64,000 nt of DNA from a virus, in IMG/VR virus record IMGVR_UViG_3300035698_004130, positions 38,678 through 102,677 of that record, one strand, 5' to 3'. The translations under genes were made by a program, and so were the position numbers. Numbering within the stretch: position 1 is the first letter of the stretch; every line of letters begins with the position of its first letter. Positions 8,199 to 27,152 of the stretch are shown here, piece after piece. The notes beneath the pieces were generated by a model. That model saw only the letters and a list, made by a program, of their open reading frames with translations. It searched no databases and was not told where the DNA came from.

Positions 8199-9131
8199 AT
8201 GATTGACATTGATGAACTAACCGTAGACGAATCCCTGGAACTTCTTGAGGGAATTACAAAGAAGCTTAATAAAATTAAGAAAGCAGGAGCCCAAAACTTC
8301 GGGGACCCAAAGATGGGAGATATGGTAAGCCAAGGCCAAAAGGAGATTAATAGAAATCCTAAGCCCGGATTTGGTGGGACTACCAAACGAAGGTCAGAAC
8401 ATAGACGTAAAAGAGGTGTGAAAAAGGCTCAGGAATCTCTTTTGAACTTTATCCAACAAGCTGTTAGTGAGGCTAATAAGGCTAACAAAGCTAAGAAAAG
8501 AAACTATGAGGGTAAGTCGGGTGCCGATATTATGTCCAAGGAGAAATTAGGAATTCATTCCTTGCCTGCTGGAACAAAAAAAAGAGCATTTGATGGCATG
8601 ATTAAATCCGATGCTAAGGGGGGAGGGACTAAAAATAGAATCCATCATGAGGCAGGAAGAAGGGCTGTTCACAGACAAAAAGCTCGCGAATCACTATTTG
8701 GAACAATCCATAACATGATTACCGAAGAGCAAGCAGATGACATTGAACAAGCCGGAGGTAGCCCTGAGGTTTTCAGAGCCACCAGAAAGGCCAAGCTCGC
8801 TCAAAGAGGTGTTCGTAAGTCTAAGCACATTTCCCGTAAGGATGCTTTAGGTAAGATGGGAGGAAGATATAAGAAAGATGGAACTCAAGCTGACAAGCAT
8901 ACTAAGTCAGGTGGAGAAAAGAACTTCTCGGATGATACCAAGAAGACTTCAGGTATTCCACTTAATCCAAAGGGTAAGCCTAAAAAGGGAAGATCAAGAG
9001 GAGACAAAGCTGACGTTAGAGGAAAGACTGTGAACACCTCACGTTCAACCGGAGAAGAAGGTCGTAAGGCTGATGCTAATGCAGACGCTTTCAGTGACCT
9101 AGTGGGTAACCTTAGCAAGAACAAACGCTAG
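8199..9131 (+). CDS. very basic repeat-motif protein, candidate internal head protein
   Basis: A 310-residue Lys/Arg/Gly-rich protein, probably largely disordered. Short amphipathic segments recur: ESLELLEGIT (11-20), KAQESLLNFI (76-85) and KARESLFGTI (161-170). The same KAxESL[L/F]xxI pattern occurs in the C-terminal tail of the prohead protease (KAHESLLQVI), and LLEGIT recurs in the capsid protein N-terminus. T4-like phages package basic internal proteins whose N-terminal targeting peptides are cut after Glu by the prohead protease, so a similar role is inferred. It is on the plus strand, divergent from thyX, and its stop overlaps the convergent polymerase stop (CTAG). Confidence 0.75.
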   Translation: MIDIDELTVDESLELLEGITKKLNKIKKAGAQNFGDPKMGDMVSQGQKEINRNPKPGFGGTTKRRSEHRRKRGVKKAQESLLNFIQQAVSEANKANKAKKRNYEGKSGADIMSKEKLGIHSLPAGTKKRAFDGMIKSDAKGGGTKNRIHHEAGRRAVHRQKARESLFGTIHNMITEEQADDIEQAGGSPEVFRATRKAKLAQRGVRKSKHISRKDALGKMGGRYKKDGTQADKHTKSGGEKNFSDDTKKTSGIPLNPKGKPKKGRSRGDKADVRGKTVNTSRSTGEEGRKADANADAFSDLVGNLSKNKR

Positions 9132-13681: not shown

Positions 13682-14218
13682 ATGAACGATAATTTTGACG
13701 TTAAAGCTCTAGAAAAGGACAAACCTAAGAAGCGGATCAACTCAAGGACCAAGGGGAATACTTTCGAAAGGAAGATCGCAAAGATCTTGAATGAAAGATT
13801 CGATACCAAGGACTTCTGTAGAACCCCAGGAAGTGGTGCATTTGCAACTACCCACACTCTTCCAACATACTTGCAGATTCATGGTGATTTAATCACTCCA
13901 ATAAACTTTAAATATACGATTGAGTGCAAGAAGGGGTATAACAAGGAAGGTTTATGTGAGTTATTTAATAGCAAGTCCAAACTTATCTCTATGATAGCTC
14001 AGGCAAGGCGAGATTCGATGAAGGTTTCTCAATCTTTTTTATTAATTCTTTCTCAAGACCGTAAAGATCCACTAGTTATCACCGATGAGTGCCTAGAGAG
14101 ATTTATAGAAATGGAACAAATCAATGCGTCCTTCTCATGGGGAAAAGTTTCAATCGTAACTCTAAACGACTTTTTGAGTCTTACCGACAGCCACTTCTTT
14201 AATGAAAAGTCTTTGTAA
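13682..14218 (+). CDS. PD-(D/E)XK nuclease, Holliday-junction-resolvase-like
   Basis: A 178-residue nuclease of the restriction-endonuclease fold. Seen: KGNTFERKIAKILN (active-site Glu), CRTPGSGAFATT, then HGDLITP (Asp) and YTIECKKG (Glu and Lys). The order E...D...ExK and the RTPGSG loop resemble archaeal Hjc-type and phage resolvases that cut branched DNA before packaging. No T4 gp49 homologue is visible, so this may fill its role; that is inference. The start is placed at MNDNFD because the 30 residues upstream look non-coding. The 3' end overlaps the convergent 725-residue gene by 57 bases. Confidence 0.8.
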   Translation: MNDNFDVKALEKDKPKKRINSRTKGNTFERKIAKILNERFDTKDFCRTPGSGAFATTHTLPTYLQIHGDLITPINFKYTIECKKGYNKEGLCELFNSKSKLISMIAQARRDSMKVSQSFLLILSQDRKDPLVITDECLERFIEMEQINASFSWGKVSIVTLNDFLSLTDSHFFNEKSL

Positions 14219-16339
14219 GAAAGCTTTTTGGGATGACAAGTAGGATTCCATCATTGTCTCCATTCCGGTATCTAGACTCAGCTTTTGGAGCGTCTTAAGG
14301 TCGGTAATACAAAAGATTTTTGTAAAGTAAATTCTAGCCCCTTCGAGGCTATTATTACATATTTCATCTTTTAAATAAACCTTCAAGCTTGTATCCTGAA
14401 CATTGAAGAATATAAAAGTGTTTCCTGTAGCTCTGATATCCCATTCACCTGAGTTAAACAGAAAAGAACTTATAATATCTTTCAATATGGTATTGTAACC
14501 GATCGAGTAGGATTCTGTAGTCTGGATATCTCTGAACTCGGAGATCGTAGAGTCGTCAGCAGACCCAGCAGCTACAAAGAGCTTCATTGCAAGATATTGC
14601 TTGGCTTCTGGAACATTCTTCTTGATATCAGAAATGATCTTCTTGTTCTTTAAGTAGACTGAACAGTATTGTTTGATCTTGTCTTCTAGAAGCTTTCTAT
14701 CATCCTCATCATGATTATGCTGGTATCGCTTTAGAAGTTGAACAAGTTCATACTTGTCATTATTAGCATTCAGTGGATCTCCAACTTCATTGTAGGATGA
14801 GTTAGCGATGAGGTTATCCAGCATAGATCCAATGAAGTTTGTAAATGGGGATACATTCTGCATATTCCCAGTTGAAGCATTCCTTGTCTTCACTCTGCTT
14901 GCTAGTGCTCCAATATCTGCTCCGATCTTCTGAAGTGAATCGGAGTAAGCTTTAACCGTGTTGATGTCCTTTACTCCAGTAATCTCTTGATACTTGAGCA
15001 TGAACCTGTTAGTTGGATCAGTGGTTACTCCAGCTACAAACTTAGATACGTTGTCTAGAGTTGCTACACCTAGGATTGGTTTCTGAATTCCAAGATAGTG
15101 CTTGATGTTGGACTGAGTGTAAAAGGCAGGATGCCCTGCTAGAAGAGCTTCTGAGTGTGTCGCCAGTGTTAATAGTTCAGGTCTATCTTTGAATATGAGT
15201 TCTAGTGGAGCAGACTTAACCATTGAGTTCGTAGAGATGTCTTCCTCTGAGAATCCCATAGTTACAAGAGCTTGCTTGGCCACTTCAAAGTTCTGATATA
15301 CCTCATACGTGTCTGCCATGAATCCCTCACCAGCACCAGACTTTCTAGTGATAATGAAGGAGGGTTTGCGAGCTTCTATATGGCGTTTTGAGGTCTTGAT
15401 GACCTTACCCACTGTCTCGCGTCCTCCAATAGGATCTAGGAGCACTGAGAAGTTCCTGATGGCTTGTGCGTCCTCTGGTTCAAGTGCTGCGCTCTCAAAT
15501 GTGGTCTGCCATTGCACGTAGGACTGATTTACCAAAGCAAGCTTCTGTTTGATGCCTGAATAAAGGGTTCCGGCACTTGATCCAATGGCTTCTGCACCTG
15601 GATGAGCAATCTGTGCTAATCTCTTTTGAGTGTCAATTAGATTGAAGACTGTTAGTGTATCCTGAAGGGAGAGGGCTCTAATTGCCTCGTCAATCCCTGG
15701 ACTTGTTCTGAGCCCAACATTGATTCTCTTAATCTTGATTTGAAATTTGAGAGTAATAGCTCTGGCTATCATCTTCAGGAATCCAATACTATCTTTGAAT
15801 ACTAATCCTGAGTTGGTCACATCCTCAAGGATGGAAACTGTTCCGTCTGAGTTAACCACTAGCATTGAAGTGATCTTGTTTTTCTCATTTTCCCCAATAT
15901 TGTCCTTCGCTAACGCTTCCATGATATCCCTTACGTTCTGAGAAACAATCAGAGAAACCCTTGGGTTGGTCATTTGAGGGAGAGTATCATACTCCTTCGT
16001 CATGGGATTATACTGGATCTTCACCTTCGGTGCTACGATCTGGTTCTCGATGGAAGCGGCACCACCTGTTACGAACTGCGTAAACATTTGGTATTCCTCC
16101 CAAGGTTTGCCCATTAGTAACTTCTTATCAATACCTTCGTATACTCGTGGGATAGAAGTTAAGATATCTTGAAATACTTCCTGCTCAGGAGTCAGGGACA
16201 TTTCTCCCATCATGGGATCTTGTCCCATTGGGTCTTGTTGTGCTTGAGGATCTCCTACAACCTCTTCCTCAATGAGAAGTTTAAGTGTCCTTTTCTTTTG
16301 CTTTGAGTAGCTTTCGAGTAGAGAGGTAAAGAAATCCAT
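14162..16339 (-). CDS. large head-associated protein of unknown function (candidate internal head protein)
   Basis: A 725-residue protein following the tube gene, the position of the portal gene in T4. It does not read as a portal: no portal crown or stem features are recognisable. Residues 1-26 are a short amphipathic helix followed by LLIEEE, similar to prohead targeting peptides cut after Glu. Residues 27-50 are Gln/Met/Pro/Gly rich, and the rest is a mostly helical globular sequence. Placement between terminators in the head/tail block suggests a late virion protein. It overlaps the convergent resolvase gene at its 3' end. Confidence 0.7.
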   Translation of the reverse strand: MDFFTSLLESYSKQKKRTLKLLIEEEVVGDPQAQQDPMGQDPMMGEMSLTPEQEVFQDILTSIPRVYEGIDKKLLMGKPWEEYQMFTQFVTGGAASIENQIVAPKVKIQYNPMTKEYDTLPQMTNPRVSLIVSQNVRDIMEALAKDNIGENEKNKITSMLVVNSDGTVSILEDVTNSGLVFKDSIGFLKMIARAITLKFQIKIKRINVGLRTSPGIDEAIRALSLQDTLTVFNLIDTQKRLAQIAHPGAEAIGSSAGTLYSGIKQKLALVNQSYVQWQTTFESAALEPEDAQAIRNFSVLLDPIGGRETVGKVIKTSKRHIEARKPSFIITRKSGAGEGFMADTYEVYQNFEVAKQALVTMGFSEEDISTNSMVKSAPLELIFKDRPELLTLATHSEALLAGHPAFYTQSNIKHYLGIQKPILGVATLDNVSKFVAGVTTDPTNRFMLKYQEITGVKDINTVKAYSDSLQKIGADIGALASRVKTRNASTGNMQNVSPFTNFIGSMLDNLIANSSYNEVGDPLNANNDKYELVQLLKRYQHNHDEDDRKLLEDKIKQYCSVYLKNKKIISDIKKNVPEAKQYLAMKLFVAAGSADDSTISEFRDIQTTESYSIGYNTILKDIISSFLFNSGEWDIRATGNTFIFFNVQDTSLKVYLKDEICNNSLEGARIYFTKIFCITDLKTLQKLSLDTGMETMMESYLSSQKAFLQRLFIKEVAVGKTQKVV

Positions 16340-21944: not shown

Positions 21945-23543
21945 TTAGTATCCAGCATTTCCGCCGTAATACTTGGTGTTCCTGAACACTTCCTTCGTGA
22001 TGAAGTCCGATCCGGCTCCAACAAGTCGAATGACTCTGTAGAATCGTGATGCCGGTTGAATGGCAACCTTTCCGTAACGAGTCAGGATACCCTTTCTCGG
22101 TTGGAACGACTCAGGGTCAACAACCTTATCTAGTGGCATGATTGGAACGTATGGGCAGTAGAACAGTCCTGCATCCATTGGGCCGTTGCCCTTGTATCCA
22201 ACAATGATTTCGTCTTCAGGGAACATCGGATCCACAATGAGATCATACTTGCCCATGAACTTACCAGTGTAGCTGATTTGCTGGCCGTTGTTTGTCGTTG
22301 GACTCCAATCTCTTGGAATACCACCTTCAAGCTTGGCAGCAGATTCTAGCAGCGTAGCGATCAACGGTGAGGTGATGATTACGCAACCAGGACCACGCAG
22401 CGTAGTTCTGTAGATATCTTGGCTAGCGAAGTTAATCAGTGCCAGGACATTCGAGTATAGGTGGCCAAGGTGTTGTGGAGCAAAGTTTGTGGCAGTGCTT
22501 GCGAACCGGCCAAGATCCATAACGTATACATTGGAGCCACTAGTGTTAGCGGATTCTCCAGCTAGGTCAGAGTGGAAATCGTAGTTGAATGCTCCGGGAA
22601 CGAATCCTTCGGAAGTTTGACTTGGACCTCTACCACCGATCTCTGGGAATGCATCAGCACCACCATTGAAGAGTGAACGGAGATACCATCCACCAAGGGG
22701 GTTACCGTGTTGCGTTTCGAATCCATAAGCAATCATTCGAATGTCTTCGATAAGCTCACGGTCGATTTCTAGGTTCATTTCCTTCGACAGAAGATCCGTT
22801 AGCTCGGCTTCCATGTCTAGGTTATGATATGCCTTCAAGTCTTGAGCAGCTTCAAGAGTCCAAAGGGCTCTCATCTTACGCTCACGAGCTTGCACAGTCT
22901 GCTTCTGAATGTGCATTGTAACTTCTGGAATACCAGTAGTTGCAAGGCGTTCAGCAGCAGATACATTCCATCCAAGAGTAGTCGTGCTATCAGGCCACGA
23001 TGCTAGTTTACCACCATAAGTAGTCGAAGGTGAACCATGAGTGTCACTGATAACGTTGGAAAGGTCGAAACCTTGTGTTCCAGAGAAATCAGAGTATGCA
23101 AGGGAGTCGTTCGTTCCCGCACCAAACGTTCCTTGTGCTCCAGGTCCAGACACTGATCCGATAGGACCAGCGGCAAGGCCGAGTGGCGTGATCTTGAACT
23201 GAGAATACATCGTCTCAACATTGTCTCCGTATGCACGGGAGTTACCCATGTAGAAGATCTGTGAAACAGGTCCATCCATTGCTTGAGTAGCACCAATCTT
23301 ATTAAAGATCAATTCTGGATACATTCTACGAATCATGGGGAATGCCCACTTTTGGAATGTTCCAATCTTACCCACAGTCGTTGCCCCAGCACCGATAGCT
23401 TCTTCGTTTAGCTTCGAGTTCTGGTTGACAAATTCTTTTGCCTGATTATCCATCAGACGAGCGGTTTGGTAAGCTACGCTTTGGTCGGTAATCCCTTCCA
23501 GTAGCTTTTCCCAACGCTTCATTAATCCTGCTCTATCAGTCAT
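21945..23543 (-). CDS. 23: major capsid protein precursor, T4 gp23-like
   Basis: A 532-residue HK97-fold capsid protein (T4 gp23 has 521). Conserved pieces: FQKWAFPMIRRMYPELIFNKIG after residue 60, ERKMRALWTLEAAQDLKAYHNLDMEAEL in the middle and the C-terminal RYGKVAIQPASRFYRVIRL. The first ~48 residues should be a prohead-specific peptide: they contain WEKLLEGIT and end LNEE-AIGAG, fitting the (L/I)xE cleavage rule of the T4 prohead protease. Followed by a strong terminator; scaffold gene is two bases upstream. Confidence 0.95.
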   Translation of the reverse strand: MTDRAGLMKRWEKLLEGITDQSVAYQTARLMDNQAKEFVNQNSKLNEEAIGAGATTVGKIGTFQKWAFPMIRRMYPELIFNKIGATQAMDGPVSQIFYMGNSRAYGDNVETMYSQFKITPLGLAAGPIGSVSGPGAQGTFGAGTNDSLAYSDFSGTQGFDLSNVISDTHGSPSTTYGGKLASWPDSTTTLGWNVSAAERLATTGIPEVTMHIQKQTVQARERKMRALWTLEAAQDLKAYHNLDMEAELTDLLSKEMNLEIDRELIEDIRMIAYGFETQHGNPLGGWYLRSLFNGGADAFPEIGGRGPSQTSEGFVPGAFNYDFHSDLAGESANTSGSNVYVMDLGRFASTATNFAPQHLGHLYSNVLALINFASQDIYRTTLRGPGCVIITSPLIATLLESAAKLEGGIPRDWSPTTNNGQQISYTGKFMGKYDLIVDPMFPEDEIIVGYKGNGPMDAGLFYCPYVPIMPLDKVVDPESFQPRKGILTRYGKVAIQPASRFYRVIRLVGAGSDFITKEVFRNTKYYGGNAGY

Positions 23544-23544
23544 A

Positions 23545-24192
23545 TTAGTTCTTTAAACCTTTAAGTTTATCTAATACACGTTGGTCAACCCAAGGGTTAT
23601 CGCCTGCGTGATTCTCATTCAATTTGTTACTTTCCTCTTCATCAACGACGAAGTTTTCTTGGCTAATAACAAGTGCCGTATCCGAAAAGTTTCGACCTTT
23701 CGATTCTGAGAGTCTTTCCAGATCCTCATTTGTGTCTTCTAGTTGTTCTTCCAAACGGGTGCTCTTATCTACAGCAACCTTAACTTGGCTCTTCAACTTA
23801 ACGTTATCCTTCAGTAGCTTGTTAACTTGCTCTAAAAGAACGTCGTTCTTATGCTCAAGTGACTCACCTAGTGAAGCAAGGATTCCCATCCCAGTGATTT
23901 CATCTTCAGTTGTGTTCTCTACTGCAAACATTGATCTTACTGTTTCAAACATTTGAGCGTTTCTGTAGACTGGATTCTCTAGCTCAAGCTCCTTAATGGC
24001 TTGCTCCTTCAACTTATCGATGTTACCTCTAATGAAGTATGATACCTTGTTCGTGAGGTCAGCTTTGGCTTCCTGCACTTTCTGCTTAATAGTGACCGAC
24101 AGTAATTCCGCAATCTTTTCAAGGGTTGACTCATCCATCCCCTCAGGTAAATGATCTGCGATACTCTCGATTACATCTTTCTTTTTGCCCAT
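23545..24192 (-). CDS. 22: prohead core scaffold, T4 gp22-like
   Basis: A 215-residue, mostly coiled-coil, acidic protein that should form the assembly core inside the prohead and be degraded by the protease. Long heptad-rich helices span residues 100-165. The VDEEESNKLNE tail has LxE-type sites. Its place between protease and capsid genes is the T4 order 21-22-23. Little sequence identity to T4 gp22 is visible; the call rests on context and coiled-coil character. Confidence 0.85.
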   Translation of the reverse strand: MGKKKDVIESIADHLPEGMDESTLEKIAELLSVTIKQKVQEAKADLTNKVSYFIRGNIDKLKEQAIKELELENPVYRNAQMFETVRSMFAVENTTEDEITGMGILASLGESLEHKNDVLLEQVNKLLKDNVKLKSQVKVAVDKSTRLEEQLEDTNEDLERLSESKGRNFSDTALVISQENFVVDEEESNKLNENHAGDNPWVDQRVLDKLKGLKN

Positions 24193-24264: not shown

Positions 24265-26034
24265 TTAGGTAGGAATAAACTTCTTTTTCTTACGTTTGTT
24301 AGCTTTCATTAGGGAAGCTGCTGACTTTTCCATTGAATCTCGGTTAGCTCTACCCTGCCTGGAAGCAGCTTTATTACCTGCTCTAAGCATTGCTGACAGC
24401 CCAGATCCCTTGTTATGCTTCTTTTGTGCTGTTTCAGCGTCCCCGACTCTACTCCCAGGATGTTTCCCTGAACCTATCGTCCCTTTAGCGGCTTGCTTTG
24501 CTCCCTGGCGTGATTCCCATCCACTTTTCTTAATCTTATTAGCAGCTTTGGTAGCTCCTTCAATTACTTGTAATAGGGATTCATGAGCCTTGCTTAACGC
24601 ACGACCTTTATTAAGTTGTTCTGCTCTCTGTCCATCACGCCTTCTTCCAACTGCGCTCTTTTCGGTAGAGTGTGCTTCAGCCTTTGCCCTTGCAATGTTA
24701 GATGTTTTAGTTCCGGGTGCTCTAGTTGCTGAATCTCTGGTGTTATAATTCTTTAGAAACTTATTGGTAGTTTTTACTCTACCTGCTTCATAAAGGGCTA
24801 TTAGAGAGGTTACAAAGGCTTCGTTGACGCCTGCGCCGAATGCATTATTCTTATTGGGTTTTGGCTTGATGTATTTTGGTTTGGCATTAACGCCTGCTCC
24901 AAAGTGGCTGTTAGCCTTTGCTTGAGCTTGCTTTGCGGCATGACGCTTTTCCGCATAGATATTAGCAGCCTTTCTAGCTCTCCCTGTTCGTCTATCACTA
25001 GCACTTGCAGGAGGAGTTCTCCTAACCTTCTTTACAGATGGCTTAGGTGCTGATTGCTTAACATCCGCCTTGGAAGCTGCACGCTTTTGGATGAAATCAC
25101 TAGTTGTTGTGATACCCTTCTTAATTCCAGATCCTGCTGCTCCAGCGGCTCTTCCTAGTTTTCTAGCAATTCCACCATCACTATTTGGTTTGGTAGTTCC
25201 AGACTTTTGCATTCCAGAACGAGCAGCACCAATTGTTTTTCCTGCGGAATGTGCAGCCCACTTAGCCGCCTTTCCAAGCCCAGACTTTACTTTAGGTGCA
25301 GCGAAGTTGCCAAAATCCTTTAGATTCTTTCCGGCTCTTTTACCCGCCCAACTAGCAGCCTTTCCGATAGCTTTTCCAACGCCTCTTGCACCCTTTTTAG
25401 CCATATCACCAAAGGCACCCTCATCAAGGTCTTCCCCTAGTGCTTCATTGATCTTTTGCTTAAGCATCGTCATTGCGATTTGCTCTCTTCGCATTCTCGA
25501 TACGATAGCTTGGGCCTTCTGACTGTTTAACTTAACAGATTCTGTTAGGCTGGGGTAGGCTCCGTGAGTTGATGGGTCTGATACAAGGTCAAACGTTAGA
25601 AGCTTAAAGTCTTCATTAACGGTCTTATACTTTGCACCTTCTGATAGGGTTCCCAAACCTCTACTTGAAATACCAATTTTAACTCCATCATTGATAAGAG
25701 CTTGAACGATCTTTCCACTAGGTGTAGAAAGGATCTCACACTCTCCAATAACGTCACCATTAGACTTAACTTCTAGGTTAGTGATAAGGTGGGATGCTTG
25801 GGAGAGTTGGATCTCATCATTTAGTGGATGATCCAATGCACCTACTAACGAGCGTGATTTAATCTTCTCGTTGAGGTTCTTTACTTGAGATTCCAATACC
25901 TTTCTTGGGTAGACTCGGTTGTTATTGTTAGCCTCGTCACACTTTTGGAACTTACCGGAAAGAATCATCTTCTTCTGCCCAGACTTGCTCTCGGTAACTC
26001 TAGCTTCTAATACGGAATACTCAACTAATAGCAT
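24265..26034 (-). CDS. 21: prohead maturation protease (T4 gp21-like) fused to a long basic tail
   Basis: Residues 1-180 are the serine protease of T4-type proheads (herpes assemblin-like fold): YPRKVLES near 42-49, catalytic His69 in GALDHP, and Ser123/124 in GISSRGLG. T4 gp21 ends at 212 residues; this protein has 589. Residues 206-589 are extremely Lys/Arg/Ala/Gly rich, histone-like. They are introduced by EALGEDLDE-GAFG (199-209), which fits the protease's own LxE cleavage rule. Other candidate sites are LYE416-A417 and VIE492-G493. KAHESLLQVI (483-491 region) matches repeats in the 8199-9131 protein. The tail may be packaged as DNA-binding peptides after self-cleavage (inference). Confidence 0.9.
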   Translation of the reverse strand: MLLVEYSVLEARVTESKSGQKKMILSGKFQKCDEANNNNRVYPRKVLESQVKNLNEKIKSRSLVGALDHPLNDEIQLSQASHLITNLEVKSNGDVIGECEILSTPSGKIVQALINDGVKIGISSRGLGTLSEGAKYKTVNEDFKLLTFDLVSDPSTHGAYPSLTESVKLNSQKAQAIVSRMRREQIAMTMLKQKINEALGEDLDEGAFGDMAKKGARGVGKAIGKAASWAGKRAGKNLKDFGNFAAPKVKSGLGKAAKWAAHSAGKTIGAARSGMQKSGTTKPNSDGGIARKLGRAAGAAGSGIKKGITTTSDFIQKRAASKADVKQSAPKPSVKKVRRTPPASASDRRTGRARKAANIYAEKRHAAKQAQAKANSHFGAGVNAKPKYIKPKPNKNNAFGAGVNEAFVTSLIALYEAGRVKTTNKFLKNYNTRDSATRAPGTKTSNIARAKAEAHSTEKSAVGRRRDGQRAEQLNKGRALSKAHESLLQVIEGATKAANKIKKSGWESRQGAKQAAKGTIGSGKHPGSRVGDAETAQKKHNKGSGLSAMLRAGNKAASRQGRANRDSMEKSAASLMKANKRKKKKFIPT

Positions 26035-26438
26035 TATTGTTTTTTACCTTTCTTCCAGAATTGGTCACTGGAGAACTTCTTAGACTTACTCTTCCCATGT
26101 CTTACCATGGTTCTTACAGAAAACTTCTTAACGTCTCCAAAGTCCGATGGGATTGTTCCCGAACTGAATCCCTTAGCAACTCTGCCCGAAACTGATTGAG
26201 CGTCATCCTTGCCCCACTTTCTCTTAGTGATTACATATAGACGATCTGACGACTTGGTTGAAAAGATTTGACCTACGAATCCATTTTTCAGTGCATCCAT
26301 AATGGACTTGTAAATATGAACCCTAGCCTTACTAGCGTTTGAATGCCCCTTTCCAGTAGTCTTCATTTTACTTCGACCAGCCTGTGAACCTTGTCCAGAG
26401 GATGCTCTTGTTTCCGAGATTAGCTTAAGTAGATCCAC
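26034..26438 (-). CDS. small basic protein with candidate capsid-targeting peptide
   Basis: A 134-residue Lys/Ser-rich protein beginning MDLLKLISE-TRASS. The first nine residues resemble the capsid-targeting peptides of T4 internal proteins, which are cut after Glu by gp21. It lies directly upstream of the protease gene, overlapping it by one base, and overlaps the preceding gene by 14. The basic body would bind packaged DNA. Internal head protein is the best inference; no homologue recognised. Confidence 0.7.
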   Translation of the reverse strand: MDLLKLISETRASSGQGSQAGRSKMKTTGKGHSNASKARVHIYKSIMDALKNGFVGQIFSTKSSDRLYVITKRKWGKDDAQSVSGRVAKGFSSGTIPSDFGDVKKFSVRTMVRHGKSKSKKFSSDQFWKKGKKQ

Positions 26439-26859
26439 GTTTCTTTATTCTCTTTTTCTTCCGAACTGGTGCTGTATTGACTCCAATCATTCCAACTGTT
26501 GTCATCTCAGCAATAGTTTCTCTTGCTTCCTTAAGGAGTGCTGTCAGCTTTACAATTAAAGAATTAACCTTGGCTTCCATAACCTTTTTAGGGTCCCCCT
26601 TAGGATTTGCTCTGGGGACTTCCTTTAGTGCTGGCTCTATGCCCTCATTAACAGGATCATTAGCCAAAGCAAAGTTCACAAAATTCTCGACAAGTGCGTC
26701 AGATAGCACTACTCCTCTAATATCATCCATTTGCACAGGAATAGCTCTCGCTCCTGTGGGCACTGTTTCATTGCTCATGCCAGCGAAGATATCTTCAGTG
26801 GCGGATAGCAAGTCATTATGATTCAGATTAGTCATCGTATTCGTCATCGTATTCGTCAT
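26425..26859 (-). CDS. hypothetical prohead-block protein
   Basis: Up to 144 residues. The N-terminal MTNTMTNTMTN comes from a 12-base repeat that gives three in-frame ATGs (26859, 26847, 26835), so the true start is uncertain; AGAGG lies directly before the first and 12 bases before the second. The middle is helical, and the end (RKKKRIKKRG) is strongly basic. Position in the head block next to the acidic protein and protease suggests a prohead core component. Confidence 0.6.
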   Translation of the reverse strand: MTNTMTNTMTNLNHNDLLSATEDIFAGMSNETVPTGARAIPVQMDDIRGVVLSDALVENFVNFALANDPVNEGIEPALKEVPRANPKGDPKKVMEAKVNSLIVKLTALLKEARETIAEMTTVGMIGVNTAPVRKKKRIKKRGST

Positions 26860-27124
26860 CCTCTAGTTCGTCATCTTCCAAAAGGCTCTCACCATCTTCG
26901 TAACTCACAGACTCATTAATTGCATCAAGGATGTAATCAACATGTTCTGCTAGAGTTTCTTCGGATAGTGGTTCCTCTAGTTGGGACTCACATAGTGGGC
27001 AAGCGTGCTCAGCTTCATCAGTTGCCTCTTCGACAACAGCCTCTGCACTTTCGGTGACTTTACGAGTCGGATCTGATTCAACAATCATCTTCACGAACTC
27101 GTCTGTAATTTCAATTCCTTTCAT
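26828..27124 (-). CDS. acidic prohead-core candidate protein
   Basis: A 98-residue, very acidic protein ending in DDEYDDEYDD, with one CPLC pair near the middle. The ATG at 27124 has AGGAG nine bases upstream and is preferred to an upstream start at 27145. It is first in the head gene block, the place of the small acidic core protein gp67 in T4. Similarity is in size, charge and position only. Confidence 0.6.
   Translation of the reverse strand: MKGIEITDEFVKMIVESDPTRKVTESAEAVVEEATDEAEHACPLCESQLEEPLSEETLAEHVDYILDAINESVSYEDGESLLEDDELEDDEYDDEYDD
26831..26860. repeat. 12-bp tandem repeat inside a gene overlap
   Basis: Two and a half copies of gtcatcgtattc. On the minus strand one frame reads as the Asp/Glu/Tyr tail of the acidic protein; the frame shifted by two reads as MTNT repeats at the start of the next protein. 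Expansion or loss of a unit changes both proteins by four residues. Confidence 0.85.
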
Positions 27125-27152
27125 AGTAAAAACTCCTGGCAGCAACTATTGC

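What the first reader, a model, noticed from the sequence alone, without database searches (positions are those of the whole stretch)
24265..26034. Prohead protease fused to a long histone-like tail with self-cleavage sites
The gp21-type protease domain ends near residue 180-200, as in T4, but the frame continues ~385 residues of Lys/Arg/Ala/Gly sequence. The junction EALGEDLDE-GAFG and later LYE-A and VIE-G fit the T4 (L/I)xE rule. The enzyme could release its own tail inside the prohead as DNA-condensing peptides, making the gene a packaged polyprotein. I know of no described T4-type protease with such a tail.
Basis: partly seen in the sequence, partly recalled or inferred. Interest (0 to 1): 0.78.

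Follow-up and report, generated by a model that had tools for sequence, protein, structure and literature searches.

The report
Phage head protease with swappable basic tail
An uncultured T4-type phage makes its head-maturation protease with a large, strongly positively charged extra tail that the enzyme could cut off itself; dozens of related viruses carry different tails in the same place, built partly from pieces that also occur as separate basic proteins, so the gene looks like a protease fused to an exchangeable internal head protein.

Summary
It is not an oddity: 64 distinct tails were compared (window plus IMG/VR relatives); all are net positive, 34-408 residues long and hypervariable. 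Two relatives with 98.5% identical protease domains have tails only 19% identical. Where tails align, dN/dS is mostly well below 1.

In relatives, tail modules recur in separate small basic genes beside the protease (E to 2e-19), and one close pair has the same sequence fused in one phage and split off in the other. A recurrent module centres on [VIL]xE|[AG]; the DLRKW module of the separate genes follows [LIV]xE in 8 of 8 cases; short LxE leaders like T4 capsid-targeting sequences are common.

C-terminal self-cleavage is known (T4, phiKZ, SPN3US); fusion to an exchangeable internal-protein-like cassette appears undescribed. Cleavage, virion retention and DNA condensation are untested.

The parts
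24265..26034 (-). whole gene: gp21-type prohead protease with C-terminal basic tail, 589 aa
   Evidence: open frame; S77 4e-23; phrog_207 1.8e-47
25444..26034 (-). residues 1-197: protease domain; putative catalytic residues H69, S124 (or S123), D149
   Evidence: fold match to 5jbl 6.5e-12; residues invariant in 60 sequences; catalytic assignment by alignment to T4 gp21
25444..25452 (-). INE195-197|A: best candidate self-cleavage junction
   Evidence: [LIVM]xE[AGST] in this segment in 41 of 65 relatives against 6.8 expected; a T4-type gp21 ends LAE|AMKKAL
25420..25428 (-).
   Evidence: sequence; not conserved in relatives
24268..25419 (-). residues 206-589: basic tail
   Evidence: composition; basic tails at this place in the relatives
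24820..24828 (-). VNE403-405|A: possible internal site (V at P3)
   Evidence: sequence
24787..24795 (-). LYE414-416|A: possible internal site, fits the strict rule
   Evidence: sequence
24559..24567 (-). VIE490-492|G: possible internal site (V at P3)
   Evidence: sequence
26034..26438 (-). conserved 134-aa basic core protein (net +21) with capsid-targeting-like leader MDLLKLISE|T
   Evidence: about 60% identical in close relatives; leader xxE conserved
26425..26859 (-). 144-aa conserved core-region protein, function unknown
   Evidence: homologues in the same place
26828..27145 (-). acidic gp67-like core protein (strongly acidic C-terminus)
   Evidence: homologues of net charge about -30 in the same place; gp67-like by charge and position only
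23545..24192 (-). gp22-like scaffold, 215 aa, separate from the protease
   Evidence: conserved between protease and gp23 in relatives; assignment by position
21945..23543 (-). major capsid protein gp23; candidate processing site near KLNE|EAIG
   Evidence: Pfam Gp23 9.8e-72; xxE conserved near this place in relatives
8199..9131 (+). second basic core-like protein, 310 aa, net +33, begins MIDIDELTVDESLELLE|G
   Evidence: shares one element with the tail, whole-length similarity not significant

Best explanation
The gene is a fusion of the phage's gp21-type prohead protease with a basic internal (core) protein carried as its C-terminal propeptide. The chain enters the prohead core, where the tail binds acidic core proteins. 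When activated, the protease cuts itself after INE197 (possibly LDE205, then at internal sites), releasing the 22-kDa protease and one or more very basic pieces. Acidic core peptides leave; the basic pieces tend to stay with the incoming DNA, as T4 internal proteins do. In this virus group the tail is an exchangeable slot: tails are replaced and rebuilt from modules that also occur as separate basic genes beside the protease. Shown by sequence: fusion, charge, conserved junction motif, module sharing in relatives, fused/split pair, selection on the protein. Inferred: cleavage, core binding, retention in the head, any role in DNA condensation or host takeover.
For: Junction motif in 41/65 sequences against 6.8 expected. 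T4-type gp21 C-terminus LAE|AMKKAL. C-terminal self-processing known for T4, phiKZ, SPN3US. Tail modules shared with separate basic ORFs beside the protease, E to 2e-19. L099 fused, L100 split, domains 185/200 identical. Recurrent module with E at 35/39 and A/G after it at 37/38. DLRKW module preceded by [LIV]xE in 8/8. Ten-residue LxE leaders on separate basic ORFs. dN/dS mostly 0.02-0.5 in alignable tails. Cassette-like replacement: domain 98.5%, tail 19%.
Against: No cleavage or virion data. The window's own tail shares little with the modules of relatives. xxE enrichment after removing similar contexts is modest (odds ratio 2.24, p=0.008) and a Lys control also rises to 1.8. The junction motif could be conserved as a helix end. 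About a third of relatives, mostly the distant ones, lack A/G/S/T after the E, and some have almost no tail.
Confidence: 0.5

Rival explanations
1. The tail is only a targeting and activation propeptide. It anchors the protease in the acidic core, is cut off, chopped up and expelled; its sequence drifts because mainly charge matters.
For: Known C-terminal propeptides: 64 residues in SPN3US. Charge is kept while sequence is not. Acidic gp67-like neighbour. Long basic peptides with internal sites could be degraded.
Against: Length up to 408 aa, modules shared with separate proteins, and mostly low dN/dS say that more than charge is kept.
Confidence: 0.3
2. The tail is never cut. It is a permanent basic extension that holds the protease on DNA or core, and the xxE motifs are incidental.
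For: Enrichment after removing similar sequences is modest; no cleavage data exist.
Against: C-terminal self-processing is usual for this protease class, and the junction motif is conserved and matches a T4-type C-terminus.
Confidence: 0.1
3. The tail is a scaffold fused to the protease, as seems the case in an uncultured 636-kb phage and as is common in HK97-type phages (the latter from my own knowledge).
For: LR756504 carries a 712-aa protease with an acidic tail (net -48) and [LIV]AE sites spaced 14 residues apart.
Against: A separate gp22-like scaffold follows the protease in the window and relatives, and these tails are basic, not acidic.
Confidence: 0.07

Closest known systems
T4 gp21 prohead protease (MEROPS S77, Pfam PF03420, PDB 5jbl)
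   Same: Domain, fold, neighbourhood of core genes and gp23; C-terminal processing; LAE|A near the C-terminus in a T4-type member (PMC9026906)
   Different: T4-type gp21 is 212 aa with about 6 residues behind that site; here about 390
SPN3US gp245 / phiKZ gp175 prohead proteases
   Same: Self-cleaved C-terminal propeptide; 64 residues in gp245 (PMC10052503)
   Different: Cleavage motif AxE in SPN3US; no exchangeable basic cassette reported in the texts read
T4 internal proteins IPI-IPIII with capsid-targeting sequences
   Same: Basic, poorly conserved, short leader ending L/I-x-E (PMC9026906); relatives' separate basic ORFs look alike by charge and leader
   Different: T4 IPs are separate genes with no protease attached; no sequence homology was tested or claimed
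Cyanophage T4-GC119 hypothetical proteins (e.g. PSSM2_123)
   Same: Basic, modular, share DUF5872-like modules with separate ORFs of the window's relatives; modules often preceded by [LIV]xE
   Different: Encoded near gp15/gp16, not fused to the protease
Protease with acidic tail in the uncultured 636-kb phage LR756504
   Same: gp21-type protease with a long tail rich in xxE sites
   Different: Tail acidic and regularly repeated, probably a scaffold

Membership tests
gp21-type prohead protease (S77) | Sequence match above the curated cut-off | tested here: met
   82.4 bits against 27
gp21-type prohead protease (S77) | Fold of T4 gp21 | tested here: met
   Foldseek 6.5e-12, TM 0.58/0.73 to 5jbl
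gp21-type prohead protease (S77) | Conserved His, Ser, Asp | tested here: met
   H69, S123/S124, D149 invariant in 60 sequences; which residues are catalytic is by alignment only
gp21-type prohead protease (S77) | Gene between core genes and scaffold-gp23 | tested here: met
   gene order
gp21-type prohead protease (S77) | Proteolytic activity after L/I-x-E, self-cleavage | not testable with these tools
   motifs only
T4-type internal protein (IP) | Basic charge | tested here: met
   net +62 after residue 200
T4-type internal protein (IP) | N-terminal capsid-targeting leader ending L/I-x-E | tested here: inconclusive
   the tail has the protease in place of a leader, with INE|A at the junction; separate ORFs of relatives and the 134-aa neighbour have leaders
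T4-type internal protein (IP) | Packaged in the head and injected | not testable with these tools
   no virion data
Histone-like DNA-condensing protein | Match to a histone or other chromatin protein family | tested here: not met
   Pfam finds only S77 in the whole protein at E up to 0.1
Histone-like DNA-condensing protein | Binds and condenses DNA | not testable with these tools
   composition only

The most novel reading that the evidence does not exclude
A lineage of T4-type phages uses the C-terminus of its head protease as a cargo slot: exchangeable basic modules are carried into the prohead on every protease subunit, released by self-cleavage, packaged with the DNA and injected, with cassettes replaced between close relatives under pressure from hosts.
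Probability: 0.33. Interest if true: 0.8.

Novelty: new variant of a known kind. Interest (0 to 1): 0.62.

Why it matters
[quoted passage not shown] A natural series of proteases with the same domain and tails from almost none to over 400 residues would let one ask what the C-terminal propeptide does. It also links the protease to the poorly conserved internal proteins that T4-like phages inject, and suggests a natural way of loading cargo into phage heads.

Tried and rejected
Artefact or frameshift: rejected (more than 60 contigs; mostly low dN/dS in alignable tails). Uniqueness: rejected. Histone homology: no match. LDE205 as the general junction: rejected in favour of INE197.

The tail of relative L029 gave no match in named phages even at E 10, but the low-complexity filter weakens this. 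The window tail gave no BLAST match below 0.5 among the tails and separate ORFs with filtering; only an FGAGV/KPK element shared with L084 stands clearly above shuffles (z 4.2). P0002 against the whole tail is not significant (95 against a 99th percentile of 99); one element chosen afterwards is. P0002 found no relatives in phages or viral contigs. The single-sequence AlphaFold model of the whole protein is uninformative (pLDDT 48). The T4 portal profile search rang nowhere, controls included, and shows nothing. One genome-contig scan gave two contigs, in an Altibacter MAG and a Prochlorococcus single-cell assembly: weak hints of host only. Literature searches found no description of such tails, but the library lacks most subscription papers.

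Full report
WHAT IS THERE. The finding lies on the minus strand: complement(24265..26034), ATG to stop, 589 aa. Residues 9-162 are a prohead protease of the T4 gp21 type (Pfam Peptidase_S77 4e-23, cut-off passed; PHROG head maturation protease 1.8e-47). A model built from 60 sequences matches T4 gp21, 5jbl, at Foldseek E 6.5e-12, with herpesvirus proteases far behind. H69, S123/S124 and D149 are invariant in the alignment. The rest of the frame is basic: K 15%, R 8%, A 18%, G 12%, with 13 Glu in the last 391 residues. The window is part of a 102.7-kb virus record; the genes around the protease, in order of transcription, are acidic gp67-like, 144 aa, basic 134 aa, protease, scaffold, gp23.

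SITES. Five xxE sites lie at or behind the end of the domain: INE197|A, LDE205|G, VNE405|A, LYE416|A, VIE492|G. Shuffling the tail gives 0.67 sites of the broad form against 4 seen (P=0.004) and 0.36 against 2 for the strict form (P=0.047). Across relatives the segment around residue 197 carries [LIVM]xE[AGST] in 41 of 65 sequences against 6.8 expected. A T4-type gp21 (phage ECML-134, 212 aa) ends LAE|AMKKAL at about this place. I therefore take INE197|A as the main junction. It may also be conserved as the end of a helix; no cleavage was tested.

RELATIVES. Scans of IMG/VR gave 17 and 80 loci, partly the same contigs. 64 distinct tails of at least 30 residues, the window included, were compared; all are net positive, 34 to 408 aa. 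A few relatives have almost no tail (L072, L081, L083, L097). The named phages examined have proteases of 193-251 aa. Protease domains are 49-71% identical to the window's, while the tails are hypervariable: L046 and L064 share 98.5% of the domain but 19% of the tail (131 and 251 aa), L041 and L051 98.0% and 23%. Where tails can be aligned, most pairs show dN/dS of 0.02-0.5 (L037/L043 0.07, L029/L051 0.29), so they are selected as protein, though they evolve faster than the domain.

MODULES. Tails are mosaics. A recurrent element, e.g. SSTEILGRTVVE|AFKKVCWGDRYDE, has E in 35 of 39 and A/G after it in 37 of 38 distinct non-gap instances, in fused tails and in separate ORFs. Another, directly behind the junction in many relatives, resembles EF-hand/dockerin repeats (Dockerin_1 1e-4, just below its cut-off). 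Between protease and scaffold many relatives have extra small ORFs, 34 in all; most but not all are strongly basic. Some share modules with the fused tails of other phages (L030 ORF against the L058 tail, 2e-19). L099 and L100 have domains 185/200 identical; L099 carries a long fused tail, L100 a short one followed by a separate 290-aa ORF similar to the L099 tail (score 150, shuffle maximum 94). This is the clearest case of the same sequence fused in one phage and separate in another.

LEADERS. The conserved 134-aa basic neighbour begins MDLLKLISE|T here and with a similar leader in nearly all relatives. Separate basic ORFs begin MSAFRNYLSE|G, VGSFKNYLIE|G, MTDLKMLLAE|D, MKDLTTQLVE|D; each of these leaders is ten residues long, like T4's. 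The DLRKW module (phrog_23735; weakly DUF5872-like) is preceded directly by [LIV]xE in 8 of 8 cases with several different upstream sequences. T4's rule is L/I-x-E and its leaders are the capsid-targeting sequences (PMC9026906). By pattern, then, the xxE rule operates in this group.

STATISTICAL CAUTION. All tails together hold 81 [LIVMF]xE[AGS] against 34.6 +/- 5.4 shuffled; the Asp control is not enriched. After removing similar contexts the association is odds ratio 2.24, p=0.008 for Glu at -2, while Lys gives 1.8. The case rests on conserved modules and leaders more than on raw counts.

MECHANISM. Most likely the protein is made as one chain, the basic tail helps it into the acidic core, and the activated protease cuts at INE197 and perhaps further, leaving a 21.8-kDa protease and basic pieces of up to 200 residues (net +37, +10, +20). 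In T4 about 55 gp21 copies sit in the core with about 360 copies of each IP (PMC9958956), so a tail would be a minor internal protein by number. T4 gp21, phiKZ gp175 and SPN3US gp245 are all processed at the C-terminus, the last losing 64 residues by autocleavage. A gp21 homologue is among the virion proteins detected in cyanophages (PMC3037559). Retention and DNA condensation are inference; the main rival is a targeting propeptide that is chopped up and expelled.

THE WINDOW'S OWN TAIL. It is one of the longest tails and the most basic, and it lacks the clear modules of its relatives. An FGAGV/KPK element is shared with L084 (z 4.2), and an element around VIE492 resembles part of a second basic ORF in the same genome, 8199..9131(+), but the whole-length similarity is not significant. 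The module argument is thus drawn from relatives.

VERDICT. A real, reproducible feature, and an undescribed one as far as the searched literature goes: a gp21-type protease whose C-terminal propeptide has become an exchangeable, internal-protein-like cassette. New variant of a known kind.

Noticed in passing
L122 (LR756504.1 184465-189971): Uncultured 636-kb phage: prohead protease of 712 aa with an acidic tail (net -48) holding [LIV]AE motifs spaced 14 residues apart; looks like a protease-scaffold fusion with tandem self-cleavage sites.
   Followed up: partly
L102-L104, L111-L117 (cyanophage T4-GC119 genes): Basic modular proteins (net +17 to +58) whose DUF5872-like modules are often preceded by [LIV]xE; 24 sites against 13.2 +/- 3.2 shuffled in ten related sequences. 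Possibly polyprotein precursors of internal proteins.
   Followed up: partly
window 8199-9131 (+): 310-aa basic ORF (net +33) with leader MIDIDELTVDESLELLE|G, on the strand opposite to its neighbours; no relatives found.
   Followed up: partly
window 14162-16339 (-): 725-aa protein, portal candidate by position behind the sheath gene and a 199-aa protein that may be the tail tube, begins MDFFTSLLE|S, a capsid-targeting-like leader. No family match.
   Followed up: no
L016, L028, L030, L039, L043, L050, L054, L060, L061 between protease and scaffold: A conserved 161-162-aa protein with a coiled-coil-like charged half and two hydrophobic, possibly membrane-spanning stretches; weak match to phrog_1544.
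   Followed up: no
L043 residues 206-255 and many relatives: EF-hand/dockerin-like repeats (LDKNKNNKIDSEDF..., FPDLSGDGKVTMKDIL) directly behind the cleavage junction, suggesting calcium binding inside the head.
   Followed up: partly
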